This document shows positions 6,000 through 52,132 of a stretch of DNA of 54,383 bases, piece by piece. The stretch covers positions 1 to 54,383 of IMG/VR virus record IMGVR_UViG_3300032282_004873; one strand, 5' to 3'. Positions within the stretch are counted from its first letter, which is position 1. Each line of letters starts with the position of its first letter. Made by a program: the position numbers and the translations under genes. The notes under the pieces were generated by a model. The model was not told the origin of the DNA. It ran no database searches and was given only the letters and a program-made list of their open reading frames with translations. The DNA comes from a virus.

Positions 6000-6064
6000 T
6001 TAATATGTCTCATTACTATTTTGGAACTATTCGAACGTTTTTCGAAATGGTGGAAAAAATATGA
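5996..6064 (+). CDS. 22-codon bridging ORF between two overlapping neighbours
   Basis: ATG 5996 overlaps the TGA of the methyltransferase (ATGA), and its own stop TGA 6062-6064 overlaps the ATG of the epimerase at 6061. It encodes 22 residues starting MINMSHYYFGTIRTFF. No known peptide is recognised. It fills the only gap between the two genes exactly, so it may be a coupling or leader peptide that carries ribosomes across. A chance frame is possible at this length. Confidence 0.35.
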   Translation: MINMSHYYFGTIRTFFEMVEKI

Positions 6065-7098
6065 AAATATTAGTCACAGGTGGCGCAGGTTTTATTGGTA
6101 GTGCTCTGATAAAGAGAATGAGTGAATACGGCTGGTCTATTGATGTAATAGATAATTTATCAAAACAAGTGCATGGAAACTCGCCAGAAACCAACTCTGA
6201 AACGTTTAAAAAAATTAAAAATATTTCTAATGTTATTATTGGCGATGCTAGTGATGTTAAAAGTTATGAAAGTATTTTTGATAAAGAGTATGATTCAATT
6301 ATATGTTTAGCGGCAGAAACTGGGACTGGTCAATCCATGTATCAGGCAAAAAATTATTGCCAATCAAATATAAGCTCAATTGCTTTATTAAATGATTTGA
6401 TAGTGCAAAAAAAGATAATAACAAAAAAAATAATATTAGCGTCTAGTCGAGCAGTTTATGGCGAAGCAACATTGGATAAAAATAAAAATCCATACCCATC
6501 GTCAGAAGATGATAAGCTTGATCCTAAATCAATATATGCTATAACTAAGTTGACACAAGAACAATTGATATTAACAGGATTTCCGGATATATCAGCATTA
6601 ATATTTAGATTTCAAAACGTTTATGGGCCAGGACAAAGTTTAATTAATCCTTATACCGGTATTTTATCAATATTTTCTACGGCATTATTAAATGATAAAG
6701 ACATATACATATTTGAAGATGGATTAATGACAAGGGATTTTGTGTATATTGATGACATAGTAGATGGACTAATATTAGGTATACAATATGAAACTGAACA
6801 AAAGCTTACATTCAATTTAGGCTCCGGAGAAAAAACAACAGTTTTACAAGTTGCAAATACTCTCAAAAGGCTATATCAAAAAGATACACGTATTATCATA
6901 ACTGGCGAAAAAAGAATTGGAGACATAAGACACAATTACGCAGATCTAAAAAAGGCAAATCAAATAGGATATGTGCCTAAAGTTACATTCGCAAATGGAA
7001 TCTGCAAGTTTGCCGAGTGGGTTTTGTCTCAGAATATTAATAAATCCATGTATGAAGAAAGCATACAAGAATTACGAAAAAGTAAGCTATTAAAATGA
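6061..7098 (+). CDS. NAD-dependent sugar epimerase/dehydratase (extended SDR), dTDP-rhamnose 4-epimerase-like
   Basis: A 345-residue extended SDR. The NAD-binding glycine motif is VTGGAGFIGS (5-14). LAAETGTGQSMY (83-94) is a segment I associate with dTDP-L-rhamnose 4-epimerases (WbiB type). ILASSRAVYGEA (125-136) and the catalytic Tyr159-x3-Lys163 follow, with MTRDFVYIDDIVDG as the usual C-terminal SDR motif. It would interconvert a nucleotide sugar at C4, possibly host-made dTDP-rhamnose, since no rhamnose synthesis genes are in the window (inference). Other nucleotide-sugar SDRs cannot be excluded. A GGTGGA ribosome binding site lies in the bridging ORF just upstream. Confidence 0.85.
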   Translation: MKILVTGGAGFIGSALIKRMSEYGWSIDVIDNLSKQVHGNSPETNSETFKKIKNISNVIIGDASDVKSYESIFDKEYDSIICLAAETGTGQSMYQAKNYCQSNISSIALLNDLIVQKKIITKKIILASSRAVYGEATLDKNKNPYPSSEDDKLDPKSIYAITKLTQEQLILTGFPDISALIFRFQNVYGPGQSLINPYTGILSIFSTALLNDKDIYIFEDGLMTRDFVYIDDIVDGLILGIQYETEQKLTFNLGSGEKTTVLQVANTLKRLYQKDTRIIITGEKRIGDIRHNYADLKKANQIGYVPKVTFANGICKFAEWVLSQNINKSMYEESIQELRKSKLLK

Positions 7099-7127
7099 AA
7101 ATAGATTTTTGAGAAAGGTTAAATATT

Positions 7128-7814
7128 ATGAATTATTATGGTGACATTGTTGCTTCAAATGCAAACTTAGGATTCATGTTTGATGAAAATTTTGTTTCGG
7201 CATATAAGAATTGTGTTGAAGCTGATAGAGGTCGTTTATTGTTAAATGGATATGATATACGATGGAGAATACATACATTATTATTTGCAGCCAAATTAGC
7301 AACTAATCTAGATGGAGATTTTGTTGATTGCGGCTGTGGTTTTGGATTGTTTGCATCGGCAATATTGAGTTACATTAATTTGCAAAACACGAACAAAAAA
7401 TATTATATGTTCGACACCTTTGAAGGACTTTCTGAAAAGTATAGTACATCTGACGAAATGATAAGAAATACGTTAATTTATAAAACTATTCCTTCATATT
7501 ATGATGAAGTAGTTGAACGTTTTAAAAACAAAGAATATGTTCGGATTGTAAAAGGAGCAGTACCGGAATCTTTAGCTGAAGTCAATATTGATAAAGTAGC
7601 TTTTTTAAGCATTGATATGAACTGTGTAATACCTGAAGAAAAAGCTTTGGAGCATTTTTGGCCTCGTTTAGTTAGTGGTGGAGTTATAGTATTTGATGAT
7701 TATGGATTTCCAAAGCACGAAGAACAAAAGAAAGCTCATGATTCATTTGCAGCAAAACATAATTTGGTAATATACACGTCTCCTACTGGTCAAGGAATTT
7801 TAATTAAGCCATGA
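7128..7814 (+). CDS. TylF/MycF-type macrocin O-methyltransferase family protein
   Basis: A 228-residue protein of the TylF family. GDFVDCGCGFGLFAS (63-77) is motif I; YYMFDTFEGL (92-101) is a family hallmark; VRIVKGAVPESL, then FLSIDMNCV and GGVIVFDDYG (about 185-194), carry the acidic residues that bind metal and substrate. Known members methylate a sugar hydroxyl (macrocin, or mycinamicin III at its javose unit). GAAAGG sits upstream with good spacing. Its TGA overlaps the ATG of the GT10-like gene. Methylation of a deoxysugar built by this cassette is the straightforward reading. Confidence 0.87.
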   Translation: MNYYGDIVASNANLGFMFDENFVSAYKNCVEADRGRLLLNGYDIRWRIHTLLFAAKLATNLDGDFVDCGCGFGLFASAILSYINLQNTNKKYYMFDTFEGLSEKYSTSDEMIRNTLIYKTIPSYYDEVVERFKNKEYVRIVKGAVPESLAEVNIDKVAFLSIDMNCVIPEEKALEHFWPRLVSGGVIVFDDYGFPKHEEQKKAHDSFAAKHNLVIYTSPTGQGILIKP

Positions 7815-8623
7815 GTTCACACCTAAACATAGATATAAAATGTGATTTTATATCTTTTGACTTGTACCATGAAAAGAAGCTTGAATTGTATGTGAATCAA
7901 ATACCAACGGCTGCTCCAGAGCAAAATACATTAAGATTTGTCTATATTATTGAACCATATCAAATATGTGACTTAAGATATCAGGCTTTAGCTAGCTACA
8001 AAAAAACATATGATTTTCTTTTGACGCATGATGAAACTCTATTAAAGAAAGTTGACGGTTCATACCTAATGGAATTTGGTTCCTGTTGGATTAGAGATTT
8101 TCAGCACGAAGATAAAGAATATTCTGTTTCTTTCCTCTGTGGTGGCAAAACAATAACGTCTGGGCATAACCTCAGACACGAGATATGGAACTCTTCTCAG
8201 CTAATCAATATCCCTAAAAACTTTTTTATATCCGGCAATTATTCCGGTGGCTTACATAACTCATATGGATATCCGAGACTAGGAAATAAAAAGCATCAAT
8301 TATTTCAGAGTATGTTTCATATATGCATAGAAAATGTAAAAAACAATAACTTCTTTACTGAAAAGTTGATTGATTGTTTGTACGCAAAAACCGTCCCAAT
8401 ATATTACGGCTGTCCTAATATTGGAGATTGGTTTGATACACGTGGTTTTATTATCGTTGACAATGTTAATGATGTTGTTGAGGCAACCAACAACCTGACG
8501 ATTGATACGTATATGCAAAAGCTTGAATATGTCAACAGCAATTATTTGGCTTGTTTAAAATTTGCCGATTTCAATCAACACGTTAAAAATAAAATAGAGA
8601 GTATATTAAGCTTGTTTCCATGA
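7811..8623 (+). CDS. GT10-like (alpha-1,3/4-fucosyltransferase family) glycosyltransferase
   Basis: A 270-residue protein with the fucosyltransferase donor-binding block near its C-terminus. FHICIENVKNNN (169-180), FFTEKLIDCLYAKTVPIYYG (181-200) and CPNIGDWF match the GT10 pattern of F-x3-x-EN, TEK, and a VP-x2-x-G end. Members transfer L-fucose from GDP-fucose, and some phage and bacterial members use related GDP-sugars. The N-terminal acceptor half is short. The donor is likely the product of the neighbouring Gmd and Fcl/ColC-like enzymes. It overlaps the genes on both sides by four bases. Confidence 0.8.
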   Translation: MSSHLNIDIKCDFISFDLYHEKKLELYVNQIPTAAPEQNTLRFVYIIEPYQICDLRYQALASYKKTYDFLLTHDETLLKKVDGSYLMEFGSCWIRDFQHEDKEYSVSFLCGGKTITSGHNLRHEIWNSSQLINIPKNFFISGNYSGGLHNSYGYPRLGNKKHQLFQSMFHICIENVKNNNFFTEKLIDCLYAKTVPIYYGCPNIGDWFDTRGFIIVDNVNDVVEATNNLTIDTYMQKLEYVNSNYLACLKFADFNQHVKNKIESILSLFP

Positions 8624-9537
8624 CAAAGATTTTAATTACTGGTGCTACTGGAATGGTTGGAAGAAATATAGTTCTTCATCCTGCTGCTAATGATTTTGAC
8701 ATACTAGCTCCATCCCGAAAAGAATTGAATTTATTTGAATCAGGCTCGGTTAACTCCTATATAAAAACTCATAAGCCTGATGCGATAATTCATTGTGCCG
8801 GTAAAGTAGGTGGCATACAGGCTAATATTAAAAATCCATATGGCTTCATGTATGAAAACATGATTATGGGTCTGAACCTAGTGAACGCTGCTAAAGAACA
8901 AGGTATCGAGCGTTTAATTAATCTTGGAAGCTCTTGTATGTATCCAAGAAATGCAACCAATCCTCTAACAGAAGAAACGATACTAAAAGGCGAACTGGAA
9001 CCGACAAATGAAGGATATGCCATAGCAAAGACTGCAATAGCCAAACTATGTGTATATGCCGGAACAGAGGGGTATAAGTATAAGACCCTCATTCCTTGTA
9101 ACCTATATGGATATTGGGATAAGTTCAATCCAGAGACTAGTCATATGATCCCGGCAATAATACACAAAACGCATCAATCCAAAATAAATGGAAATACTCC
9201 AGTTGAAGTTTGGGGTACTGGTAATGCAAGAAGAGAGTTTATGTTTGCAGAGGATTTAGCAGATTTTATATATTTTTCTATTAATAAACTTGATTTGATT
9301 TCTGATATGATGAATGTAGGTTTAGGAATTGATTATTCGGTACGTGAATATTATCTAGCTGTTAAAGAAGTTTTAAATTCAGAAGCGGATTTAAGATTTA
9401 ACTTGGAAAAACCTGAAGGAATGAAGCAAAAAGTTGTTGATGTAAGTAAACAACAAAAATTAGGATGGTTTCCTAAAACAGACTTACATACCGGAATTGA
9501 AAAAACCTATAAGCATTATATGGAGCATCATAAATGA
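8620..9537 (+). CDS. fcl: GDP-L-fucose synthase / ColC-like 3,5-epimerase-4-reductase
   Basis: A 305-residue NADPH-dependent SDR. GATGMVGRNIV is at 8-18; INLGSSCMYPRNA (100-112) contains the catalytic Ser and Cys106; Tyr133-x3-Lys137 lies in NEGYAIAKTAIAK; SHMIPA contains His175; VWGTGNARREF follows. These match GDP-fucose synthase residue for residue, including the Cys/His pair used for epimerisation. It would turn GDP-4-keto-6-deoxymannose into GDP-L-fucose. ColC of colitose synthesis is a homologue acting on the 3-deoxy substrate. With a ColD-like gene immediately downstream, that role is an equal alternative. It overlaps both neighbours by ATGA. Family certain; substrate open. Confidence 0.92.
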   Translation: MTKILITGATGMVGRNIVLHPAANDFDILAPSRKELNLFESGSVNSYIKTHKPDAIIHCAGKVGGIQANIKNPYGFMYENMIMGLNLVNAAKEQGIERLINLGSSCMYPRNATNPLTEETILKGELEPTNEGYAIAKTAIAKLCVYAGTEGYKYKTLIPCNLYGYWDKFNPETSHMIPAIIHKTHQSKINGNTPVEVWGTGNARREFMFAEDLADFIYFSINKLDLISDMMNVGLGIDYSVREYYLAVKEVLNSEADLRFNLEKPEGMKQKVVDVSKQQKLGWFPKTDLHTGIEKTYKHYMEHHK

Positions 9538-10694
9538 AAGAGATAAAACTGGTTTCAGACACTATCGATAAAGCCGACATTGAACGGTTAACTAAATGGC
9601 TTTCTAGCGATCAAATTCCGAGACTTACTAAAGGTCCAGTTACGATTGAGTTTGAAGAAAAATGGTCCTCTTATTTGGGAGTTAAGCATACCACGTATGT
9701 AAATTCCGGTTCTTCAGCAATACTATTGGCGCTAGCTGCTCTTAAACAAGCTGGGCTTAAAAATGAAAAAGTTGTTGTACCAACATTAAGTTGGCTTACA
9801 GACATATCTTCAGTAATGCAGCTTGGTATGCAGCCTATTTTGTGTGATTGTAATCTTACTGACTTGTCAGTTGATTTAGAGCATCTAGAAAATATATTCA
9901 TCAAAGAGGAGCCGTCTGTTTTAATATTGGTTTCTGTTTTAGGCTTAGTGCCACAGATGGACAAAGTTTTAGAGCTTTGCAAAAAACATAACGTTCTATT
10001 AATAGAAGACGTGTGTGAAAGTATGGGCTCTGAATATAATGGGAAGAAGCTTGGAACATTTGGAGACATATCTCTGTTCTCTCTATATTACGGACACCAT
10101 CTAAGCACGATTGAAGGCGGACTAGTCTGTACAAATAATGAAAGTCTTTATTACGTAATTAATTCAATGAGATCTCATGGCTGGGATCGTGATTGGCCAA
10201 AAGAAGTTCAAGAAAAATATCGCAAAGAATATCAGGTATCTGATTTTGATGCCCTATACACTTTCTATTATCCAGGCTTCAACTTAAGGGCTACCGATTT
10301 GCAGGCTTACATTGGTTTGACACAGATTGATAAACTCAACAATTTTGCAAAAATAAGAAATAACAATTTTCAAACATACAACAGACTCCTGACAAAGAGT
10401 CTTCTTAACATTAGAAATGACCAACAAAATTTCATTTCTAATTTTGCCTATCCATATCTTTCAAACAATAGAAATAAAATAGCAAATGCATTGATGGAAA
10501 ACAACGTTGAAGTACGTCCATTGATAGCAGGTTCCCTCGCACGTAAGCCATTTTGGTATAAAACCTATGGCATTGTGGCGCTTCCGAATGCAGACTTGAT
10601 CAATGAAAAAGGTTTTTATATCCCAAATCATCAAGATTTGACAGAGGAAGATATCTCAAGGATATGTGATATCATTCACGAAAACGAGGAATGA
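9534..10694 (+). CDS. colD: ColD-like PLP sugar 3-dehydratase (DegT/StrS fold with Lys to His)
   Basis: A 386-residue DegT/DnrJ/EryC1/StrS-fold protein. NSGSSAILLALAAL (57-70) binds the PLP phosphate, and LIEDVCESMGSEYNGK (156-171) holds Asp159 for the pyridine nitrogen. At the position of the Schiff-base lysine the sequence reads SLYYGHHLSTIEGG (183-196), so His188 replaces Lys. This swap is the mark of GDP-4-keto-6-deoxymannose 3-dehydratase (ColD) and of CDP-sugar E1, which deoxygenate C3 rather than transaminate. The SMRSHGWDRDWPK and PGFNLRATDLQA stretches also recall ColD, and no Cys-rich iron-sulfur region of the E1 type was noticed. With Gmd and a ColC/Fcl-like gene beside it, GDP-colitose synthesis is likely (inference). 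Confidence 0.85.
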   Translation: MKEIKLVSDTIDKADIERLTKWLSSDQIPRLTKGPVTIEFEEKWSSYLGVKHTTYVNSGSSAILLALAALKQAGLKNEKVVVPTLSWLTDISSVMQLGMQPILCDCNLTDLSVDLEHLENIFIKEEPSVLILVSVLGLVPQMDKVLELCKKHNVLLIEDVCESMGSEYNGKKLGTFGDISLFSLYYGHHLSTIEGGLVCTNNESLYYVINSMRSHGWDRDWPKEVQEKYRKEYQVSDFDALYTFYYPGFNLRATDLQAYIGLTQIDKLNNFAKIRNNNFQTYNRLLTKSLLNIRNDQQNFISNFAYPYLSNNRNKIANALMENNVEVRPLIAGSLARKPFWYKTYGIVALPNADLINEKGFYIPNHQDLTEEDISRICDIIHENEE

Positions 10695-10695
10695 A

Positions 10696-11433
10696 ATGAT
10701 CTTATCATTATTAAAGGGTGGATTAGGAAATATGATGTTCCAAATTGCTGCTGGAGCATCATTGTCTCATGACTTGAATACAGAGTTTGTTTATACTTTG
10801 GATGGCTGGAACTGCGTAACAAACTATAATATTCAAAACTTTCCGAATACTATTTTTAAAAAGCTTAAGCAGGTTAAGATAGATTCCTACGTAGGAAACA
10901 TCAGCTTATATAGAGAAAAAGATTTTTCTTACAGCCCGGTGCCTGCAAATAGTAATCTTGCACTTGATGGATATTTTCAGAGCGAGAAATATTTTACACA
11001 CAATAGAGAACATATCAAATCTCTTTTTGATATTCCTGTTGATGCGAAATATAAAGACCATACCTTCATGCACGTTAGAAGAAAAGACTATTTGTTGCAT
11101 TCGCAAGTTCATCCAACTTGCCCTGTTTCATATTATAAAGAAGCATTAAATGTCATAGGCGCAGATAAGGTTATCATATTGAGTGATGATATTGATTGGT
11201 GCCGAAAGAATATTGATATTGGACAGGCAGAATTTAGTATGTCTAAAACAGAAATTGAAGACTTGTCTATAATGATATCATGTAAAAATTCAATTATAGC
11301 TAACAGCACCTTTAGTTGGTGGGGAGCCTGGTTATCAGATAGTGATAAGGTTATTGCTCCAAAAATGTGGTTTGGTCCACAAGGTCCAAAAAACTGGACT
11401 GACATATATGCTAGAAATTGGATAACGATTTGA
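10696..11433 (+). CDS. GT11-type glycosyltransferase (alpha-1,2-fucosyltransferase family)
   Basis: A 245-residue GT11 enzyme. KGGLGNMMFQIAAG (7-20) is the family opening, HVRRKDYL (126-133) the GDP-sugar binding block, VIILSDDIDWC (159-169) and ANSTFSWWGAWLS (202-214) the C-terminal motifs. The start is ATG 10696, six bases after the GAGGA site at 10686-10690 that lies inside the end of the dehydratase gene; an upstream in-frame codon at 10666 lacks support. GT11 members use GDP-L-fucose, some GDP-colitose. It is the second fucosyltransferase-type enzyme in the cassette, implying at least two linkages. Confidence 0.9.
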   Translation: MILSLLKGGLGNMMFQIAAGASLSHDLNTEFVYTLDGWNCVTNYNIQNFPNTIFKKLKQVKIDSYVGNISLYREKDFSYSPVPANSNLALDGYFQSEKYFTHNREHIKSLFDIPVDAKYKDHTFMHVRRKDYLLHSQVHPTCPVSYYKEALNVIGADKVIILSDDIDWCRKNIDIGQAEFSMSKTEIEDLSIMISCKNSIIANSTFSWWGAWLSDSDKVIAPKMWFGPQGPKNWTDIYARNWITI

Positions 11434-11448
11434 GGATTGAGGGGCTTT

Positions 11449-12426
11449 ATGCAGAAGACGGCATTTATTACTGGTATCACCGGACAAGATGGTTCTTACC
11501 TTGCCAAGTTACTTTTAGACAAAGGTTATCTTGTTGTAGGCATGAAGAGAAGAACTTCTCTTATAACAACAGACAGATTAGATGATGTTGCAATTTTCAG
11601 TCATCCAAATTTTAGACTTGAATACGGCAATATGACCGATTCAAGTTCTATGTATACTCTTCTTATGAAGTACAAGCCGGACGAGATCTATAACCTAGCT
11701 GCACAGAGCCATGTACGAGTTTCTTTTGAAGTCCCAGAGGAAACCTTAGACGTAGTTGGTGGTGGCGTATTGAAGCTTCTAGAGGCTTATAGGCTAATCT
11801 GCCCACAAGCACGTTTCTATCAAGCATCGTCTTCAGAGATGTATGGAGACAACGTTAACGTTCCTCAAAATGAGGAGACACGTATGACACCGGCTTCTCC
11901 ATATGCTTGTGCTAAGTTGTATGCTCATAATCTTTGCCGTAACTATCGTGAAGGTTATGGGCTTCATATATCTTCTGGAATTCTTTTTAATCACGAAAGT
12001 CCAGTAAGAGGTGAGACGTTTGTTACTCGCAAGATTACTCTTGCAGCAGCTAATATTAAGCTTGGCAAACAAGAAACATTATATCTTGGAAATCTTGACG
12101 CAAAGAGAGATTGGGGATTTGCTGGAGATTATGTTGAGGCAATGTGGTTAATGTTGCAACAACCAAAAGGCGATGATTATGTAATTGCTACTGGAGAAAC
12201 ACACACGGTTAGTGAGTTCCTACAAGTTGTGTTTGACCATGCCGGTTTAGACGTTAACAAACACGTCAAGATTGATTCACGACTATATCGCCCACATGAG
12301 GTTCCAATATTGCTTGGTGATAGTGCTAAAGCTGAAAGAATATTGGGATGGAAACCAAAGACAACATTCCGTGGTTTGGCTGAAATGATGTATGAGGCAG
12401 ACTATCATAGAGCTTTAAATCTTTGA
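11449..12426 (+). CDS. gmd: GDP-mannose 4,6-dehydratase
   Basis: A 325-residue SDR with every Gmd hallmark: [18 protein letters not shown] (6-23), [13 protein letters not shown] (82-89), [10 protein letters not shown] (124-133), catalytic Tyr152-x3-Lys156, and [16 protein letters not shown] (180-195). [18 protein letters not shown] and RPHEV follow. It makes GDP-4-keto-6-deoxymannose, the branch-point substrate for both the Fcl/ColC-like and the ColD-like enzymes upstream. ATG 11449 is chosen because GAGGGG (11439-11444) precedes it by four bases; a TTG at 11437 would extend it by four residues but overlaps that site. Codon use is less AT-biased than in the transferases upstream. Confidence 0.97.
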
Positions 12427-12442
12427 TATTGTAGTTCTAAAC

Positions 12443-12487
12443 ATCTCCTCATATATTAGCGAAAATAGTAACATCATTTGAGGAGAT
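12443..12487 (+). promoter_or_regulatory. Hairpin sequestering the ribosome binding site of the next gene
   Basis: A perfect 9-bp inverted repeat, ATCTCCTCA (12443-12451) and TGAGGAGAT (12479-12487), flanks a 27-base AT-rich loop. The 3' arm contains the GAGGAGA Shine-Dalgarno of the glycosyltransferase starting at 12492, so the folded RNA would hide it. The loop ends can add A-T pairs (12453 with 12477, 12454 with 12476). There is no T-run, so it is not a simple terminator. Translational control, for example by temperature, a protein or a processing nuclease, is inferred. Confidence 0.6.
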
Positions 12488-12491
12488 AGTA

Positions 12492-13823
12492 ATGTCAGAA
12501 GAGAACACATTTCTCACCGCTTTTAATTTTAAAAAGAAGTATAAGGTAATCACCCTTTCAGATCATCCACTTGCGCCATCGGGCGTTGGTGTTCAAGCTC
12601 GTTTCTTGATTGATGGTCTTATCAAGACCGGTCAATGGTCATTCCGCTGCTTAGGCGGCGCTATGAAGCACGCAAAGTATGACACCATAGCTGTGAACCC
12701 TGACTTCATTGTAAAGCCTGTAGACGGCTTTGGAAGCAAGGAATTGATACGTCAGCTTCTCATTGCAGAACAGCCTGATGCTATCTTCTTGTTTACAGAT
12801 CCACGTCAGTTCACTTGGCTTTGGGAAATGGAAGATGAAATCCATCAAGTATGTCCAATCGTCTATTGGCACGTTTGGGACAATGATCCATATCCAGCAT
12901 TTAACTTCCCATGGTATGAAAGCACCGATCTAATCAATTGCCTTTCTTATAAGACATTTGAACTAGTCAAGCCACATTTCCCAGAGAAGACCAACTACAT
13001 TCCTCACACCTTCCCAAAGCAAGTATATAATCCTCTTCCAGAACAACAGATTGAACAACTAAAGAAGCAAAACTTTGGTGCAAAAGCTGATTGGTTTAAG
13101 GCTCTTTGGGTTAATCGTAATGCTACACGTAAAATGCCTAACGATGTTCTATTCTCATGGAAGACATTCCTTGATGATCTTGAAAAGAAAGAAGGACACC
13201 GTAATGCAGTTCTAATCATGCACACAGATCCTGCTGATATGGAAGGTCCAAATCTTCTTGCTGTATCTGATATGCTTGGATTAAACGATAACGTTTGGTT
13301 CTCAAATGATCGTCTCCAGTTTGAGCAAATGAATGTTATGCATAATCTTGCAGACGTAACAGTTAACATTTCAAAGAATGAAGGCTTCGGTCTTTCTACC
13401 CTTATTTCATTACAGGTTGGCAAGCCAATCATTGCTCTTAAGACCGGCGGCGAAACACGTCAGGTAGAAGATTATCGTAATGGTTATCAATACGGCGTTG
13501 CTATTGAACCAGCCAAGCGTTCATTAGTTGGTTCACAGATGGTTCCTTATATCTTTGAGGACTACTGCACAGAACGTCAGCTAGCAGATGCTTTTATGGA
13601 GATTTACAGTTGGACACCAGAGAAGAAGGCAGAGTTCCGTGAGAAAGCTGCTGAATATCTTGAGCATGAGTTCAAGTATGAAAATATGGTTCAACAATGG
13701 CATGAAACTATGTTAAAGTGTGTAGAAGACTTTAAGGCTAACAAGGAAGCTGGAACAAATAAGCGTTGGAAGCTAACAGGCATTAATCCAGCTCCTGCTA
13801 ACAAGTTAATCAATATCAAGTGA
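12492..13823 (+). CDS. Glycosyltransferase, GT4-like (GT-B fold)
   Basis: A 443-residue GT-B enzyme. The N-terminal domain opens with VITLSDHPLAPSGVGVQARF (18-37), a glycine-rich acceptor-side loop. The C-terminal domain has LWVNRNATRK, AVLIMHTDP and ISKNEGFGLSTLISLQVGK, the E-x7-E-type motif that contacts the donor nucleotide, then PIIALKTGG. The length is normal for GT4. A strong GAGGAGA site precedes it but lies in a hairpin. A second GT4-like gene follows at once. Sugar and acceptor are unknown; the codon use matches Gmd and late genes rather than the very AT-rich transferases at 4600-8600. Confidence 0.85.
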   Translation: MSEENTFLTAFNFKKKYKVITLSDHPLAPSGVGVQARFLIDGLIKTGQWSFRCLGGAMKHAKYDTIAVNPDFIVKPVDGFGSKELIRQLLIAEQPDAIFLFTDPRQFTWLWEMEDEIHQVCPIVYWHVWDNDPYPAFNFPWYESTDLINCLSYKTFELVKPHFPEKTNYIPHTFPKQVYNPLPEQQIEQLKKQNFGAKADWFKALWVNRNATRKMPNDVLFSWKTFLDDLEKKEGHRNAVLIMHTDPADMEGPNLLAVSDMLGLNDNVWFSNDRLQFEQMNVMHNLADVTVNISKNEGFGLSTLISLQVGKPIIALKTGGETRQVEDYRNGYQYGVAIEPAKRSLVGSQMVPYIFEDYCTERQLADAFMEIYSWTPEKKAEFREKAAEYLEHEFKYENMVQQWHETMLKCVEDFKANKEAGTNKRWKLTGINPAPANKLINIK

Positions 13824-13837
13824 TAAGGGATATAGTA

Positions 13838-15019
13838 ATGGCAAAGAAAACAGTTATACTTCGTGGTCCGGTATTAACCGAAAGTGGTTATGGCGTTCAT
13901 GCTCGTCAGGTAGCTCGTTGGCTATTTGATTTGGCAGATAGAACTGGTAATATTGATGTTGTTACAGAGCCTCTTCCATGGGGCGCTACTCCTTGGCTTG
14001 TTGATGCATATGCTCATGATGGTCTTGTAGGTCGTCTTATTCAAGCTGCTGGCAAAAGAGACAAATATGATGTTTCTCTTCAACTACAGCTACCAAACGA
14101 ATGGAATCCTTTCCTTGCAGACTTTAACGTTGGATTAACTGCTGGCGTTGAAGGCGATGTTTGCAATCCTGCATGGATTTCATCTATCAATCGTATGGAC
14201 CTTGTAATCGTTCCATCAGAGTTTGTTAAAAACGTATTCGCAAATACTGGCGAAATAAAGACAAAGATGGTTGTTATTCCAGAAGCATTTATTGATGCTG
14301 TCGCCAAGCCAGAACTACCAACACTTGATTTGGAAGACATTAAAACAGAAACCAATTTCCTACTATTTGGTCAAGTTACTGGAAACAATCCAGAGAATGA
14401 TCGTAAGAATCTTTTCTACAGCGTTAAATGGATTTGTGAGCAGTTCAAAGACAATCCAGATGTTGGCGTTGTAATAAAGACAAATACTGGTCGTCATACA
14501 GTTGTAGATCGTCTAAGAACTACAAATCTATTGGCACAACTTACCATGGAAGTCAAAAACGGAGCAGAGTTCCCAAAGATCTATCTACTTCATGGAGATA
14601 TGAGCGATAATGAAGTAGCAGCTCTTTATCGTCATCCAAAGATTAAAGCTCTTGTAGCTCCAACAAGAGGTGAGGGTTTTGGTCTTCCTATTCTTGAAGC
14701 AGCAGCATCTGGTCTTCCAGTTATTGCTACCGGTTGGAGTGCTCACACAGAGTTCCTTGGCAAAGGCAAGTATGTAAAGCTTGACTACAGACTCGAGCAG
14801 ATTCATCAAACCCGAGTAGATAATCAGATCTGGATGCCAAACGCCAAATGGGCAAACGTAAAGGAAGATGATTTCAAGCATCGCCTTAAGAAGTTTGTAG
14901 AAAGCCCACAGATGCCACAGCAATGGGCTAAGGAGCTGTCAGAAACTCTTAAGAAGGAATATTCTTTTGAGGTGGTTTCAGCTCAATACACAGAAGTTCT
15001 TAAGGACGTATTAGGATGA
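13838..15019 (+). CDS. Glycosyltransferase, GT4-like (GT-B fold)
   Basis: A 393-residue GT-B enzyme. VILRGPVLTESGYGVHARQV (5-24) parallels the glycine-rich opening of the preceding transferase. VIVPSEFVKNVF marks the inter-domain region, and PTRGEGFGLPILEAAASGLP with VIATGWSAHTEFL is the classical GT4 donor site. The start is ATG 13838, with AAGGGA at 13825-13830 (7-base spacing); the frame is open back to GTG 13820 overlapping the previous stop. The end overlaps the next gene by ATGA. The two GT4 genes look like a functional pair adding successive sugars (inference). Confidence 0.88.
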   Translation: MAKKTVILRGPVLTESGYGVHARQVARWLFDLADRTGNIDVVTEPLPWGATPWLVDAYAHDGLVGRLIQAAGKRDKYDVSLQLQLPNEWNPFLADFNVGLTAGVEGDVCNPAWISSINRMDLVIVPSEFVKNVFANTGEIKTKMVVIPEAFIDAVAKPELPTLDLEDIKTETNFLLFGQVTGNNPENDRKNLFYSVKWICEQFKDNPDVGVVIKTNTGRHTVVDRLRTTNLLAQLTMEVKNGAEFPKIYLLHGDMSDNEVAALYRHPKIKALVAPTRGEGFGLPILEAAASGLPVIATGWSAHTEFLGKGKYVKLDYRLEQIHQTRVDNQIWMPNAKWANVKEDDFKHRLKKFVESPQMPQQWAKELSETLKKEYSFEVVSAQYTEVLKDVLG

Positions 15020-45627: not shown

Positions 45628-46116
45628 ATGACTAAAACAACTACTAAGAAAACCCCTACAAAACGTAGAAAGAGAACCCGTAAGGGCAAGAGACAATCTC
45701 ACTATATTACGGGCACACATATATCACCAAAATCTCCCCGTCCTATTCAATATCGGTCTTCATGGGAGTTGTATGTCTGTAAACATTTTGATGAAGATCC
45801 TCAGATCACATCATATGATTATGAGCCATATAAAATAGCTTATACATCAAATGCAAGGTCTGGTAGGGTTAGATTTTATATACCGGATTTTGTTGTTAAC
45901 TACGCTGATGGCTCTCAGAAGATTATTGAAGTCAAACGAAACTCTGCGTTGAATAATATTACGGTAGTAAAGAAAGCAGAGGCAGCAAGAAGATGGTGCG
46001 AAAGTCTAACAAAAAAGGGAAGGTTGACGACATACGAGTTTTGGACGGAGACGATAATATTCCCGATCCGAGCACGGTTTCTTCTTCTGGAGAAACAGCA
46101 ACAGAAAAAAGAGTAG
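45628..46116 (+). CDS. 4: Head-completion PD-(D/E)XK nuclease, T4 gp4-like
   Basis: A 162-residue protein, close to T4 gp4 (150). A basic N-terminus (KKTPTKRRKRTRKGKR) precedes PIQYRSSWELYVCKHFDEDP (39-58), containing Glu47, FYIPDFVV with Asp87, and IIEVKR with Glu101-x-Lys103. Spacing and motifs match the TnsA-like nuclease core of T4 gp4, which completes heads, perhaps by trimming DNA ends, before the tail joins. The last 124 bases overlap the next gene in another frame. It starts a new transcription block after the structural genes. Confidence 0.85.
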   Translation: MTKTTTKKTPTKRRKRTRKGKRQSHYITGTHISPKSPRPIQYRSSWELYVCKHFDEDPQITSYDYEPYKIAYTSNARSGRVRFYIPDFVVNYADGSQKIIEVKRNSALNNITVVKKAEAARRWCESLTKKGRLTTYEFWTETIIFPIRARFLLLEKQQQKKE

Positions 46117-47272: not shown

Positions 47273-48274
47273 ATGTATACCCGAGGTCAAGCAATAGATT
47301 TCATTACCAAAATCTTTGGTGAAGGATCTCTGTCAAACCAAGGTGCCAATATATCTGTTGTTTGTCCTGTCTGCATTAGTAAGAACGGGTCTTTTTACAA
47401 CAAGCGCAAACTGGCTATCCGAACTGATAACTTCGCAAATCATTGCTGGGTTTGCAATTATAAGTCTCGTAATCTTGCAGACTTAATCAAAAGATATCAC
47501 CCAGGTTATTTCACAGAATACCTGACAAGGTTTGTAGGAACTCAGCAATTAAAATTTACCACCAATAATAACAACAAGGTTGCAGAAGCTGAGTTCAAGC
47601 TTCCTAATGGATTTCAGCTATTGGCATTACCCAATAAAGATCCAAATATGGAAATAGCATATCGTTCTGCAATTAGCTATATTGCAAAGAGATTTGGATT
47701 AGAAACAAAAGACCTTGATCCTTCTCATCTTTGGTATTGGAAGTTTGGAATTGTTTTAGAGGATAGAGCTTTTGTTAATCGTGTTATTATGCCATCATTT
47801 ACTATTGATGGTGAATTAAACTATTTTACCGGCAGAGCATTTGTAGACGTTAATCCAAAATATCTTAATCCCCATGTTCAAAGAGAAGATGTTATCTTTA
47901 ATGAGATTAACATTAACTGGAAAGAACCCCTGACAATAGTTGAGGGTCCATTTGATCTTATTAAATGTAATCAAAATGCTACGTGTTTATTGGGGTCGGA
48001 TCTAACAACAGAATATAAGTTATTTTTGATGTTGGTAAAACATAAAACTCCGGTAATATTGGCATTAGATCCGGATGCAAAAGATAAAGCATTAAAGGTA
48101 GCGGAACTATTAAGTGAGTTTGATGTTCCAGTATCTTTACTTGATATTCCTGCGCCTTATAAGGACGTAGGAGAGTTAACACAAACACAGTTTAACTCCT
48201 TATTGGAAACTGTTACACCATTTAGTAAGGACTATTTGCTTAGAGCAAAGATATCAAGAATACTAAAGGTGTAA
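47273..48274 (+). CDS. 61: DNA primase, DnaG/T4 gp61-like
   Basis: A 333-residue primase, near T4 gp61 (342). The zinc site is CPVC (31-34) with CWVC (58-61). The TOPRIM core shows IVEGPFDLIK with Glu224 and Asp228, and ALDPDAKD with Asp266/Asp268. It would make RNA primers for lagging-strand synthesis with a replicative helicase, not present in this window. The start is one base after the methyltransferase stop, and GAAAGAAG precedes it. High sequence conservation of both metal sites suggests an active enzyme. Confidence 0.9.
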   Translation: MYTRGQAIDFITKIFGEGSLSNQGANISVVCPVCISKNGSFYNKRKLAIRTDNFANHCWVCNYKSRNLADLIKRYHPGYFTEYLTRFVGTQQLKFTTNNNNKVAEAEFKLPNGFQLLALPNKDPNMEIAYRSAISYIAKRFGLETKDLDPSHLWYWKFGIVLEDRAFVNRVIMPSFTIDGELNYFTGRAFVDVNPKYLNPHVQREDVIFNEININWKEPLTIVEGPFDLIKCNQNATCLLGSDLTTEYKLFLMLVKHKTPVILALDPDAKDKALKVAELLSEFDVPVSLLDIPAPYKDVGELTQTQFNSLLETVTPFSKDYLLRAKISRILKV

Positions 48275-48278
48275 GAGA

Positions 48279-51200
48279 ATGACAAAAATAGTTCAGATTT
48301 CGGATATCCATTGGCGTGGTATTGCTCGTCATGACGAATATACAGAAAGCTTTGAAAGACTTTTTGATACTCTCCGGCGTAGGATTAAGCCTGACCTTAT
48401 CATTAATACTGGAGATACATTCCATACGAAGACCCAAGGGATTACGCCCGAGGTTATTGAGAAGCTATCATGGATGCTTAGAGGGCTTGCTGATATAGCT
48501 CCAACCATTACAATGCTTGGTAATCACGATGGTAATCTAACCAATAGTGATCGTCAGGATATTATATCTCCTATCCATGAGGCAATCAATCATTCAGATG
48601 CTTATCTTCATAAGAAGTCTGGAACATATTCCCTTCCAAGAGAAGTAAAGGGTGGCAATCGTTTTGCTCTTCACGTATTCTCGCCATTTGATGAAGATGG
48701 TTGGAAGGCGATTAAACCAATCCAGGGCAAGATTAATATTGCTCTATTTCACGGTTGCGTATCTGGTTCAAAGACAGATATGGAGTTCCGTCTTATTGAC
48801 GGCGAAAGAGACGTTGCATTCTTTACAGGCATGGATTTCGTCATGCTTGGAGATATCCATAAGCAACAGTTCCTTGCTTATCGTCTTGATAAGAAGGGTG
48901 CTACTAAGCCATGGGTTGCATATCCCGGTTCATTTATTCAGCAGAACTTTGGAGAAGCGGAAACCAAGGGTTTCCTTGTTTGGGATATAAAGAGCGAGAA
49001 GGAATGGGACGTTGAGTTCCATGAGCATGAGAATAGAGCGCCATATGTTTCAGTAGAGTGGGCTGGAACGGTTAATAGCACTCTACGTCATATAGAAAAG
49101 ACCCGTAAGGAACGTGCATATATTCCTGGCACTCGTTTCCGCATTGTAAGCAATCAGCCTATTCAGCAGGTTGAAGCCCGGCAACTACTAAATGAACTTA
49201 AGGAGCATAAGGGTGCTTCTGAGGTTGTATTCAAGTATGACCTTATCAATCGGATGGAAACGATTGAAACGGATGGGCATCAGGTTCTTAAGACAAATCT
49301 ACGCAATGATCCCGAGGCGCTGGTAAGGCTCTATAAGGAGTTTGTAGAGGCGCACAAGGAAAGCTACGTCCTAAATGAAGAACAGCTTGGAGAGGCTTCT
49401 AACGTCGTTCGTGGCTATCTTACAAGGCTCAACATAGAAGACGTTGATAATGCAGTTCGTAATGCTTCATGGAGCCTTAAGAAACTTAAGTTTGATAATA
49501 TCTTCCGTTATGGTGAAGGTAATGAAGTTAACTTTGATGGCTTGGAAGGTGTTGTTGGTATCTTTGGTCCCAATAAGATCGGTAAGAGCTCTATCATTGC
49601 AGCTATCATGTATGCCCTATTCAATACAACAGATAGAGGTCCGCTAAAGGGCGCTCATATCATCAATAAAAATAAGAAGCATTGTTCTGCTGAATTGACA
49701 TTCTCTATTGCTGGAGAAGAATACCTTGTTAAGAGAGAGACTATCCGGAACTCTCCGAAGAAGGCTGCAAAGAAGGATGATGATAAGACCGTTACCAGCC
49801 TTAATCTATATAAGATTGAGAGCGATGGAACTCTTACAGAAAAGAATTCCATTTCAAGGGATGAAACCGATAGAGAGATCCGTAAGCTTGTTGGTCAGCC
49901 CCAAGATTTCCTTCTAACTGCTCTATCAAATCAGGGTGGCATTAACAAGTTTATTGAAGAAGGCGCCACACAGAGAAAGGCAATTCTTTCCCGTTTCCTT
50001 GATCTTGAACTTTTTGATAAGCTCAATGTTTATGCCAAGGATGATTTCTCAGCCCTTAATGAGAAGACCAAGAAATATATTGGATTTGATTGGGCATCTG
50101 CTCTTAAGCGTGGGCATCAAGAGGTAGAAGAGATTGAAAAGAAGATTGCCGATATTCAAACAAGTCAGCGTTCAAATCTTCATGAAAGAGATGAACTACG
50201 TCTCTGGATAATGCAACATCAGAATGTTATGCAGACTGTATCTTCAACTCGGTTTAATGAGCTGAAGAACGACATTGAATCAAAAGAAAAAACTCTCGCA
50301 TATCTTCTACGTCAAGAAGAAGAATATGAGATTAACGTTAATAACATTAGAAATGAGTTGGACAAGGTTCGTTCAGCACGTTCAAAGTATGATGTTAAGT
50401 TGTTACATGAAAAGCTTGAAAAGCTTGATCGTGTAAAGGGTGAAATATCTACTATTAAGCAATCCTTTGTTAAGGAAACAGAAACTCTAGAGCAACAAAA
50501 GAAGTCTATTAAGCGTCTTGAGACAGTTCCATGTGGAGATAGCTTTCCAACCTGTCGCTTCATAAAGGATAGCCATGCCGATAAGAAGCTAATGCGAGGA
50601 CAGGAAGAACGAGTAAATCAACTTCAAGATAGCATTAATGAGCTTAATGTTGTAGCCGAGCTTCTTATTGAAGATAAGATTGCTGAAACCTTAAAGATGG
50701 ATGAACAGGCGTCCAGGGTTCAGTTTGAATTAGAAACAAAACTCAATAAGACAATCTCAGATAAGAATGTCCGAGAAAAGGATATTTCCATAATCAAGTC
50801 TCAACTTGAAAAGAATGAAGTTGAATACAAGAAGCTTAAGGAGTTGCTAGCATCTTCTGAGAGAAAAGAGTATGAGAATAAGAAGTTAATGCTTGATGTT
50901 GTTGTTGAGCATTTAGAAGCCCGAGACAGAGAAATGAGAGATTTGTTTGTTTCTCTTGGTGGAAAGAACGAAAAACTCAAGCAACTAACAAAAGATCGTA
51001 TTGAGTGTAAATCTGACTTGGAAAAGCTTAAGATATATGAGACAGTTCAACAAGCATTTTCAAAAAATGGCATTCCTGCGATGGTGCTAAAAACCCAACT
51101 ACCAGCGATTAATATGGAGTTGGCTAAAATATTGGACAATGTAGTTGATTTTAAGGTAAGTTTGGAAACCGATATATCTTCTAATGTAATGGACGTATAC

Positions 51201-51509
51201 ATAGAAGATGGGCACTCAAGACGGATTATTGAGCTTGCCTCTGGAATGGAAAAGATGATATGTTCTCTTGCTTTGCGGGTTGCGCTTATTAATCTATCCA
51301 GCCTCTCACGTCCCGATATCTTTATAATAGATGAAGGTTTTGGAACGTTAGATCAGGAAAGCATGATTAAATGCATGGATTTGCTAACTATGTTTAAATC
51401 ATATTTCCGAACCATTATGGTAATAACTCACGTAGATCCAATCAAAGAAGTAGCAGATAAGATTATAGACATTTACAATGATGGGTTAGAATCAAAAGTA
51501 GAAGCATGA
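48279..51509 (+). CDS. Fused Mre11-Rad50 (SbcD-SbcC, T4 gp47-gp46) nuclease-ATPase
   Basis: A single 1076-residue frame with both parts of the Mre11-Rad50 complex. The N-terminal half is a calcineurin-like nuclease: ISDIHWRG (Asp9, His11), INTGDTFH (Asp46), MLGNHDGN (80-86), FHG (His158), LGDIHK (Asp192, His194). The C-terminal half is an SMC-type ATPase: Walker A GPNKIGKSS (430-438), coiled coil about 600-930, a signature-like LASGMEKMICSLALR (about 986-1000) and Walker B FIIDEGFGTLD (1015-1025). The hook has CGDSFPTC (752-759), C-x6-C rather than C-x2-C. In T4 the two are separate (339 and 560 residues). It would resect DNA ends for recombination-dependent replication. A four-base ATGA links it to the next gene. 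Confidence 0.92.
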   Translation: MTKIVQISDIHWRGIARHDEYTESFERLFDTLRRRIKPDLIINTGDTFHTKTQGITPEVIEKLSWMLRGLADIAPTITMLGNHDGNLTNSDRQDIISPIHEAINHSDAYLHKKSGTYSLPREVKGGNRFALHVFSPFDEDGWKAIKPIQGKINIALFHGCVSGSKTDMEFRLIDGERDVAFFTGMDFVMLGDIHKQQFLAYRLDKKGATKPWVAYPGSFIQQNFGEAETKGFLVWDIKSEKEWDVEFHEHENRAPYVSVEWAGTVNSTLRHIEKTRKERAYIPGTRFRIVSNQPIQQVEARQLLNELKEHKGASEVVFKYDLINRMETIETDGHQVLKTNLRNDPEALVRLYKEFVEAHKESYVLNEEQLGEASNVVRGYLTRLNIEDVDNAVRNASWSLKKLKFDNIFRYGEGNEVNFDGLEGVVGIFGPNKIGKSSIIAAIMYALFNTTDRGPLKGAHIINKNKKHCSAELTFSIAGEEYLVKRETIRNSPKKAAKKDDDKTVTSLNLYKIESDGTLTEKNSISRDETDREIRKLVGQPQDFLLTALSNQGGINKFIEEGATQRKAILSRFLDLELFDKLNVYAKDDFSALNEKTKKYIGFDWASALKRGHQEVEEIEKKIADIQTSQRSNLHERDELRLWIMQHQNVMQTVSSTRFNELKNDIESKEKTLAYLLRQEEEYEINVNNIRNELDKVRSARSKYDVKLLHEKLEKLDRVKGEISTIKQSFVKETETLEQQKKSIKRLETVPCGDSFPTCRFIKDSHADKKLMRGQEERVNQLQDSINELNVVAELLIEDKIAETLKMDEQASRVQFELETKLNKTISDKNVREKDISIIKSQLEKNEVEYKKLKELLASSERKEYENKKLMLDVVVEHLEARDREMRDLFVSLGGKNEKLKQLTKDRIECKSDLEKLKIYETVQQAFSKNGIPAMVLKTQLPAINMELAKILDNVVDFKVSLETDISSNVMDVYIEDGHSRRIIELASGMEKMICSLALRVALINLSSLSRPDIFIIDEGFGTLDQESMIKCMDLLTMFKSYFRTIMVITHVDPIKEVADKIIDIYNDGLESKVEA

Positions 51510-52132
51510 TTACAGCAAATAACACAAAGAAGACTCAAACAAGAATTCCTCGTAGCCGAGGACGAAGTGTAACAATCCCCCCTCCACCGGTTGATGAAGA
51601 GTTGGAGGAGACTGTTTCAACTGAACCGCCACCTCCACCTCCTCCAACAGACTTGGAGAAGCTTAAGAGAAAGACTTCAAAAAAGGAAGAAGAAGAACAG
51701 GAAGAAGCTCCTGAAGAACAGGCAGAAGAAACTGTAATATATTCTGACCGTTTCGTCCTTCAATCAGAAGGAATAGAAGCCTTCCGGATTAAGAACGTAG
51801 AACTTCCAAAGATTATTTTTGCTCAACACAAGAATAGTCAGTCTATTAAGGAGAAGAGCACGATTATGGTATATTTTTATACCATGCCCCATGAAAAGGG
51901 TGACACTCTTTACCCATGGAGAAAGTTGTTTGAAGCCGCCAAAAAGAATGCAATCAAGTTCTCTATCAAGTGGCTTGATGAAAAGGGTAAAGTAGAATCG
52001 GAATGGACATTTGGTGGTGCTCGCATTCAAGGTGTGGATCTCGGAAGCGCAGCATATGAGAAGCCAGAGCCAAGTGAAGGCGCAGTAGAGTTTTCATATC
52101 AAACAATCAATATTGACGGAATTGAATTCTGA
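51506..52132 (+). CDS. Unknown protein with proline/glutamate-rich N-terminus
   Basis: A 208-residue protein. Residues 1-75 are disordered and compositionally biased: PPPPVDEELEE, then PPPPPPPTDLEKLKRKTSKK and EEEEQEEAPEEQAEE. From 76 on it is a compact beta-rich domain (YSDRFVLQSEGIEAFRIKN, STIMVYFYTMPHEKGDTLYP, ESEWTFGGARIQGVDLG, VEFSYQTINIDGIEF). The end has a weak look of tail-tube-like folds, not enough for a call. It overlaps the fusion gene by ATGA. Unusual composition marks the linker as a flexible tether. Confidence 0.75.
   Translation: MITANNTKKTQTRIPRSRGRSVTIPPPPVDEELEETVSTEPPPPPPPTDLEKLKRKTSKKEEEEQEEAPEEQAEETVIYSDRFVLQSEGIEAFRIKNVELPKIIFAQHKNSQSIKEKSTIMVYFYTMPHEKGDTLYPWRKLFEAAKKNAIKFSIKWLDEKGKVESEWTFGGARIQGVDLGSAAYEKPEPSEGAVEFSYQTINIDGIEF

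What the first reader, a model, noticed from the sequence alone, without database searches (positions are those of the whole stretch)
48279..51509. Mre11 and Rad50 fused in one 1076-residue polypeptide
In T4 and bacteria the nuclease (gp47/SbcD) and ATPase (gp46/SbcC) are separate genes. Here the calcineurin-like motifs (Asp9 to His194) and the Walker A at 430, signature and Walker B at 1015 lie in one open frame, with a linker near 345-400. Fusion would fix a 1:1 ratio and tie the nuclease to the ATPase head. The usual signature LSGG is replaced by LASGMEK and the hook Cys pair is C-x6-C.
Basis: seen in the sequence. Interest (0 to 1): 0.75.

Follow-up and report, generated by a model that had tools for sequence, protein, structure and literature searches.

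The report
Phage Mre11–Rad50 fusion, already described
This phage gene joins the two halves of a DNA-break repair machine (the nuclease Mre11 and the ATPase Rad50) in one protein; the join is real but was described in 2011 and is routine in this phage's relatives, although some of those relatives show something newer, the same gene cut again inside the nuclease, apparently by mobile 'homing' genes.

Summary
One uninterrupted 1076-codon frame (48279-51509, +) carries a complete Mre11/SbcD nuclease (residues 1-320), its Rad50-binding helix pair (345-387) and a complete Rad50/SbcC ATPase (397-1076). Four independent contigs (65-92% identical) carry it unbroken, so it is not an assembly error. It is not new: Mre11/Rad50 fusions were reported in 2011 (Mimivirus R555, Bacillus phage 0305phi8-36, plasmids, eukaryotes; PMC3175470), with aquatic viruses, probably phages, proposed as main carriers. 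Here 115 of 162 classifiable relatives are fused. Most likely role: a recombination nuclease working like T4 gp46/47 (inferred). Verdict: new member of a known kind. By-product of more interest: in 47 relatives the gene is split again, inside the nuclease domain just after its last metal-binding motif. In four loci a homing-endonuclease-like gene lies between the halves, in others only its remnants. The state changes at least 5-7 times on the trees, and the broken ends are oppositely charged. This looks like recurrent homing-endonuclease 'genes in pieces'; I found no published Mre11 case.

The parts
48279..51509 (+). fused Mre11-Rad50 (SbcD-SbcC) gene, 1076 aa
48279..49028 (+). Mre11 calcineurin-like nuclease core, residues 1-250; metal/catalytic residues D9, H11, D46, N82, H83, H158, D192 (usually His), H194
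   Evidence: Pfam Metallophos; model aligns to S. aureus SbcD 7dog_B over residues 2-321, Z 24.9; invariant or nearly invariant in 55 fused relatives
48885..48908 (+). residues 203-210, loop between strands 197-203 and 209-215; intact here, the place where relatives are split or carry homing endonucleases
49029..49238 (+). Mre11 capping domain, residues 251-320
   Evidence: model secondary structure; 7dog_B alignment to residue 321
49245..49310 (+). disordered linker, residues 323-344
   Evidence: pLDDT under 50 over 323-337
49311..49439 (+). helix-loop-helix, Rad50-binding domain of Mre11, residues 345-387
   Evidence: helices 345-358 and 367-387 in the model; assignment as HLH by position and by PMC3175470
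49440..49466 (+). short junction between HLH and Rad50, residues 388-396
   Evidence: Rad50 alignments begin at residue 396-398
49467..50090 (+). Rad50 lobe I, residues 397-604
49566..49592 (+). Walker A GPNKIGKSS, residues 430-438
50091..51068 (+). coiled coil, residues 605-750 and 763-930
   Evidence: model helices
50532..50555 (+). hook C-GDSFPT-C, residues 752-759
   Evidence: C-x6-C in 127 of 149 relatives
51072..51506 (+). Rad50 lobe II, residues 932-1076
51234..51254 (+). ABC signature LASGMEK, residues 986-992
   Evidence: SGMEK in 139 of 149 relatives
51318..51338 (+). Walker B region IFIIDEG, residues 1014-1020
   Evidence: D1018 and E1019 invariant
47273..48274 (+). upstream neighbour: DNA primase-like (Toprim)
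   Evidence: phrog_47 E 1.6e-36
51506..52132 (+). downstream neighbour, 208 aa, unknown, overlaps the fusion stop by 4 nt

Best explanation
A genuine viral Mre11-Rad50 (SbcDC) fusion in a tailed phage with a contractile-tail type baseplate. Shown: one open frame; nuclease, cap, helix pair and ATPase folds in the canonical order; conserved catalytic motifs; intact copies in many independent viral contigs. Inferred: two chains dimerise through their nuclease and ATPase heads into one M2R2 clamp; ATP binding closes the heads and ATP hydrolysis opens the nuclease to DNA ends; the coiled coils meet at a C-x6-C hook. Also inferred from T4 gp46/47: the enzyme resects phage DNA ends to feed recombination-dependent replication. 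Fusion in the order Mre11-HLH-Rad50 suits the complex because the Mre11 C-terminus already sits next to the Rad50 N-terminus (PMC3175470).
For: Pfam/PHROG domains in order. AlphaFold model mean pLDDT 84.7 matching SbcC head 7yzo_D (Z 32.1, residues 398-1076) and SbcD nuclease plus cap 7dog_B (Z 24.9, residues 2-321). 69 of 88 first loci have one ORF spanning both parts; in 14 of the other 19 the ORF is cut by a contig end and 5 are split. 115 fused of 162 classifiable in the larger set. Invariant D9, H11, D46, H83, H158, D192, H194, K436, D1018, E1019 in 55 relatives. Neighbours are a primase and other DNA-metabolism genes. Microcystis phage Mel-JY01 and Tenacibaculum phage pT24 carry fusions too. 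Published precedent PMC3175470.
Against: No biochemistry. Two metal-site letters differ from cellular Mre11: GDxxH instead of GDxxD, and GDIH instead of GHIH; the same two changes are reported in Mimivirus R555 (PMC3175470). pTM of the whole model is only 0.48, so the placing of nuclease against ATPase is not established. The 2:2 state and the replication role are inferred.
Confidence: 0.9

Rival explanations
1. Assembly or sequencing error that joins two neighbouring genes (gp47-like and gp46-like).
For: In T4 and Herelleviridae the two genes are separate and close together.
Against: Independent contigs L001-L004 (65-92% identical) are open in one frame through the junction with no indel; dozens of distant relatives likewise.
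Confidence: 0.01
2. The nuclease half is catalytically changed or dead and the protein serves mainly as an SMC-like DNA tether.
For: Third metal-site Asp is His (GDTFH) and the His of GHxH is Asp (GDIH), in 155 and 157 of 162 relatives.
Against: Both positions still hold metal-binding side chains; D9, H11, D46, N82, H83, H158 and H194 are invariant or nearly so; Twort-like phage SbcD also has GDLFH; strong conservation of the site argues for use.
Confidence: 0.08
3. The fused chain is cut after translation into Mre11 and Rad50, so the fusion is only an expression device.
For: A disordered stretch 323-344 could be accessible.
Against: No conserved cut site was seen, though none was searched for systematically; where relatives break the chain they do so inside the nuclease, never between HLH and Rad50 (sampling is biased to this family).
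Confidence: 0.04

Closest known systems
Mimivirus R555 and other Mre11/Rad50 (SbcDC) fusions, Yoshida et al. 2011, PMC3175470
   Same: Same domain order Mre11-HLH-Rad50 in one chain; same GDxxH and GDxH changes at the metal site; reported as abundant in aquatic viral metagenomes and probably from phages; includes Bacillus phage 0305phi8-36.
   Different: R555 is 1351 aa and from a eukaryotic virus. The window protein belongs to a phage clade I did not compare with R555 directly (its sequence was not in the collections searched).
Microcystis phage Mel-JY01 WWT39521.1 (PP395634) and Tenacibaculum phage pT24 BPT24_019 (LC168164)
   Same: Single-chain Mre11-Rad50 in cultured phages, annotated only as 'AAA domain' and 'DNA repair'.
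   Different: Mel-JY01 is 28% identical to the window protein and has a CxxC hook. pT24 is found through the nuclease only (27% to a relative of the window protein) and is 1310 aa.
T4 gp47/gp46 and Herelleviridae SbcD/SbcC
   Same: Same two enzymes; in Herelleviridae also near the primase.
   Different: Separate genes; CxxC hook; T4 gp47 has GHFH and GDIFD.
Homing-endonuclease 'genes in pieces': Aeh1 nrdA with mobE, T4 gene 60 with mobA, phage 25 gene 43 (PMC2988022)
   Same: Explains the split relatives: an endonuclease gene in a functionally critical site splits the gene into two coding regions.
   Different: Different target gene (Mre11), many parallel cases with graded decay of the endonuclease, and charge-polarised broken ends.

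Membership tests
Mre11/Rad50 (SbcDC) fusion proteins | calcineurin-like nuclease and SbcC/Rad50 ATPase in one open frame, nuclease first | tested here: met
Mre11/Rad50 (SbcDC) fusion proteins | capping and helix-loop-helix regions retained between nuclease and ATPase | tested here: met
   model helices 345-358 and 367-387; SbcD nuclease+cap 7dog_B aligned 2-321
Mre11/Rad50 (SbcDC) fusion proteins | sequence kinship with published members such as R555 | not tested
   R555 sequence not in the collections searched; shared GDxxH/GDxH changes known only from the paper
Mre11/SbcD nuclease | DxH, GDxxD, GNHD, H, GHxH metal site | tested here: inconclusive
   most ligands canonical; GDTFH and GDIH are substitutions, family-wide
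Rad50/SbcC ATPase | Walker A, Walker B, ABC signature, coiled coil with hook | tested here: met
   Walker A 430-438, Walker B to 1019, signature SGMEK in place of SGGE, coiled coil 605-930, C-x6-C instead of CxxC hook
Rad50/SbcC ATPase | ATPase activity and zinc-mediated hook dimerisation | not testable with these tools
   needs purified protein

The most novel reading that the evidence does not exclude
The phage Mre11-Rad50 fusion gene is a repeated target of homing endonucleases that insert in the nuclease domain right after its GDIH metal motif. They leave, after decay, a two-gene enzyme whose nuclease domain is shared between two polypeptides: ORF1 holds the catalytic site, ORF2 the rest of Mre11 plus Rad50. 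The halves re-join through a beta-hairpin whose new ends evolved opposite charges. Both halves together would form a working nuclease, and covalent nuclease-ATPase linkage is lost while HLH-Rad50 linkage is kept.
Probability: 0.65. Interest if true: 0.55.

Novelty: new member of a known kind. Interest (0 to 1): 0.35.

Why it matters
The fusion itself adds a well-resolved phage clade to a protein type known since 2011 and supports that paper's proposal that phages are a main home of it. Single-chain versions could simplify structural work on the nuclease-ATPase head. The split relatives matter more: closely related phages carry the same conserved nuclease whole, interrupted by an endonuclease, or in two pieces, a natural series for asking how enzymes survive being broken by selfish genes and how broken halves find each other.

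Tried and rejected
Assembly artefact: rejected by independent relatives. Novelty of signature and hook: rejected, family-wide. Plasmid collection: no match covering most of the query. Bacterial/archaeal genomes: the best 80 loci match mostly the conserved ATPase end, the best being residues 893-1065 at E 6e-17; a few span nuclease to ATPase at about E 1e-9 over stretches whose length suggests separate sbcD-sbcC genes, not opened individually. Programmed frameshifting for the split relatives: disfavoured, because the two ORFs stand in different frame relations in different loci and many overlap by a start-stop ATGA/GTGA/TTGA. Intron: disfavoured for L090, where the endonuclease ORF overlaps both halves and leaves no room; not tested by splicing or an RNA-family scan. 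Reading the extended hairpin as a product of splitting: not settled, since fused L045, L054 and L083 have one without a split.

Full report
OBSERVATION. The window is a virus record (IMG/VR, 54383 bases). ORF 48279-51509 (+) is open for 1076 codons. Pfam finds Metallophos at 3-195, AAA_23 at 402-671, SMC_N 400-1067 and SbcC_Walker_B 981-1037 (the last three are below Pfam's curated cut-offs but agree in place and order). PHROG 77 (SbcC-like) matches 298-1074 at 1.5e-54.

NOT AN ARTEFACT. Seven viral contigs came from a first scan. Four carry the whole gene in one frame (L001-L004; 65-92% identical over the whole protein), and three run off contig ends. The alignment has no indel over the nuclease-ATPase junction among them.

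ANATOMY. AlphaFold2 with 55 fused relatives gives mean pLDDT 84.7, pTM 0.48: nuclease about 1-250, cap about 251-320, disorder 323-344, two helices 345-358 and 367-387, junction 388-396, Rad50 lobe I from 397, coiled coil 605-750 and 763-930, lobe II 932-1076. The second-look structural comparison puts residues 398-1076 on the E. coli SbcC head (7yzo_D, Z 32.1, rmsd 3.2, 350 residues) and 2-321 on the S. aureus SbcD nuclease and cap (7dog_B, Z 24.9, rmsd 3.3, 282 residues) (Foldseek). [quoted passage not shown] maritima, as cited in PMC3175470). The relative placing of nuclease and ATPase in the model is not to be trusted.

FAMILY TRAITS. Over fused and split relatives: GDxxH at the metal site in 155 of 162, GDIH in 157 of 162, SGMEK signature in 139 of 149, C-x6-C hook in 127 of 149 (15 of these also hold a CxxC) and CxxC alone in 15. 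T4 gp46 and the Staphylococcus, Enterococcus and phage G proteins have CxxC.

ALREADY DESCRIBED. Yoshida, Claverie and Ogata (Virol J 2011, PMC3175470) reported Mimivirus R555 and twelve other fusions in bacteria, plasmids, eukaryotes and Bacillus phage 0305phi8-36. They argued that aquatic viruses, in part probably phages, are the main carriers, that the order Mre11-Rad50 suits the known complex with a short linker, and that R555 has the same two metal-site changes as seen here. My scans agree: 600 candidate stretches (limit reached), 547 encoding relatives, in one viral scan. In the cultured-phage collection only 4 of 429 matching records cover 80% of the query, among them Microcystis phage Mel-JY01; Tenacibaculum phage pT24 is another cultured fusion. 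A jumbo-phage survey lists SbcC and SbcD as near-universal (PMC7824862).

SURROUNDINGS. Upstream lie a T4 gp4-like head-completion/TnsA-like nuclease, RuvC-like resolvase, DNA methyltransferase and a Toprim primase; downstream an unknown 208-aa protein overlapping the stop by 4 nt, and an HNH endonuclease. The rest of the window has baseplate-wedge and sugar-nucleotide genes. This fits a T4-type replication-recombination module in a myovirus-like phage (inference).

A SECOND FINDING IN THE RELATIVES. Five of the first relatives are broken at one place, between query residues about 202 and 210, inside the nuclease domain. A scan with the first halves and classification of all loci gave 115 fused, 47 split and 7 unclassifiable at contig ends; some loci are near-copies, and 28 split rows remain after dereplication. 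ORF1 holds every metal-binding motif; ORF2 holds the rest of Mre11, the helix pair and Rad50. In 23 of the split loci the ORFs overlap by 4 nt at a start-stop.

WHAT MADE THE SPLIT. In L117 and L120 (identical in this stretch), L158 and the 484-kb phage LR756508 (L090) a 295-306-codon ORF lies between the halves. Those of L117 and L158 match homing and HNH endonuclease families (phrog_3339, phrog_559) and are 42% identical. That of L090 is of another type (HNH-associated zinc-finger part plus TnsA-like nuclease). In L109/L110 the gap is the first 39 and last 108 nt of the L117 endonuclease gene (95% and 93% identical), in L118 its last 61 nt (95%), in L122 its last 45 nt (93%), with 15-18-nt traces in L124 and L133. 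L118 (split with remnant) and L153 (fused) are 87-89% identical in DNA on both sides of the site. On the trees the split state changes at least 7 times (108 rows, quick method), and at least 5 (N part) and 6 (C part) times in careful trees of 49 rows, with sister pairs of split and fused. This is what repeated homing and decay would give; direct mobility was not shown.

THE BROKEN ENDS. In 28 non-redundant split loci the ORF1 tail has mean net charge -6.5 and the ORF2 head +4.7 (start choice is mechanical and wrong for a few, such as L115 and L130). A fused relative with a long hairpin at this site (L045) is predicted with strands 191-203, 215-220 and 225-238 (pLDDT mostly above 90), so the split falls in a turn between paired strands. 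L045 and L054 lack the charge pattern; L083 (fused) has it. A charge-assisted strand pairing of the halves is my inference.

LIMITS. Loci were found with queries from this family, so ratios of fused to split are not population frequencies. The literature library is open-access only; absence of a published split Mre11 there is weak evidence. Function of all forms is inferred.

VERDICT. Real, well conserved, functionally plausible, already known as a kind. Interest of the given finding is modest; the recurrent splitting raises it somewhat.

Noticed in passing
L059, L061, L064, L066, L067, L090, L095-L130 and others: Relatives of the fusion are split into two genes inside the Mre11 nuclease domain right after the GDIH metal motif, often with a 4-nt start-stop overlap.
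   Followed up: yes
L117:2979-3881, L120:5171-6091, L158:5124-6011, L090:6665-7582: Homing-endonuclease-like ORFs lie between the two halves of the split nuclease; graded remnants remain in L109, L110, L118, L122 and traces in L124, L133.
   Followed up: yes
split loci, ORF1 C-terminus and ORF2 N-terminus: ORF1 tails are acidic (mean -6.5) and ORF2 heads basic (mean +4.7), suggesting complementary strands that hold the halves together.
   Followed up: partly
L045, L054, L083: Fused relatives with a long hairpin insertion at the very split site; either the state before splitting or genes re-fused after it.
   Followed up: partly
hook of the family, window 50532-50555: The Rad50 hook is C-x6-C (PCGDxFPxC) in most of this clade but CxxC in its other branches; zinc binding by the longer spacing is untested.
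   Followed up: partly
window 6061-15019: Cluster of sugar genes: three nucleotide-sugar epimerases, an aminotransferase and glycosyltransferases, as if the phage alters a surface polysaccharide.
   Followed up: no
window 45628-46116: 162-aa protein matching both T4 gp4-like head closure (phrog_218) and TnsA-like endonuclease (PF08722), the same nuclease type as in the L090 homing ORF.
   Followed up: no
L105:5016-7766: ORF2 of a split locus is interrupted twice by stops within the frame while its near-copies L104 and L106 are open; sequencing error or decay.
   Followed up: no
Tenacibaculum phage pT24 BPT24_019 (L092:5980-9912): Cultured phage with a 1310-aa Mre11-Rad50-like fusion annotated only as 'DNA repair' / 'metallo-phosphoesterase'.
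   Followed up: partly
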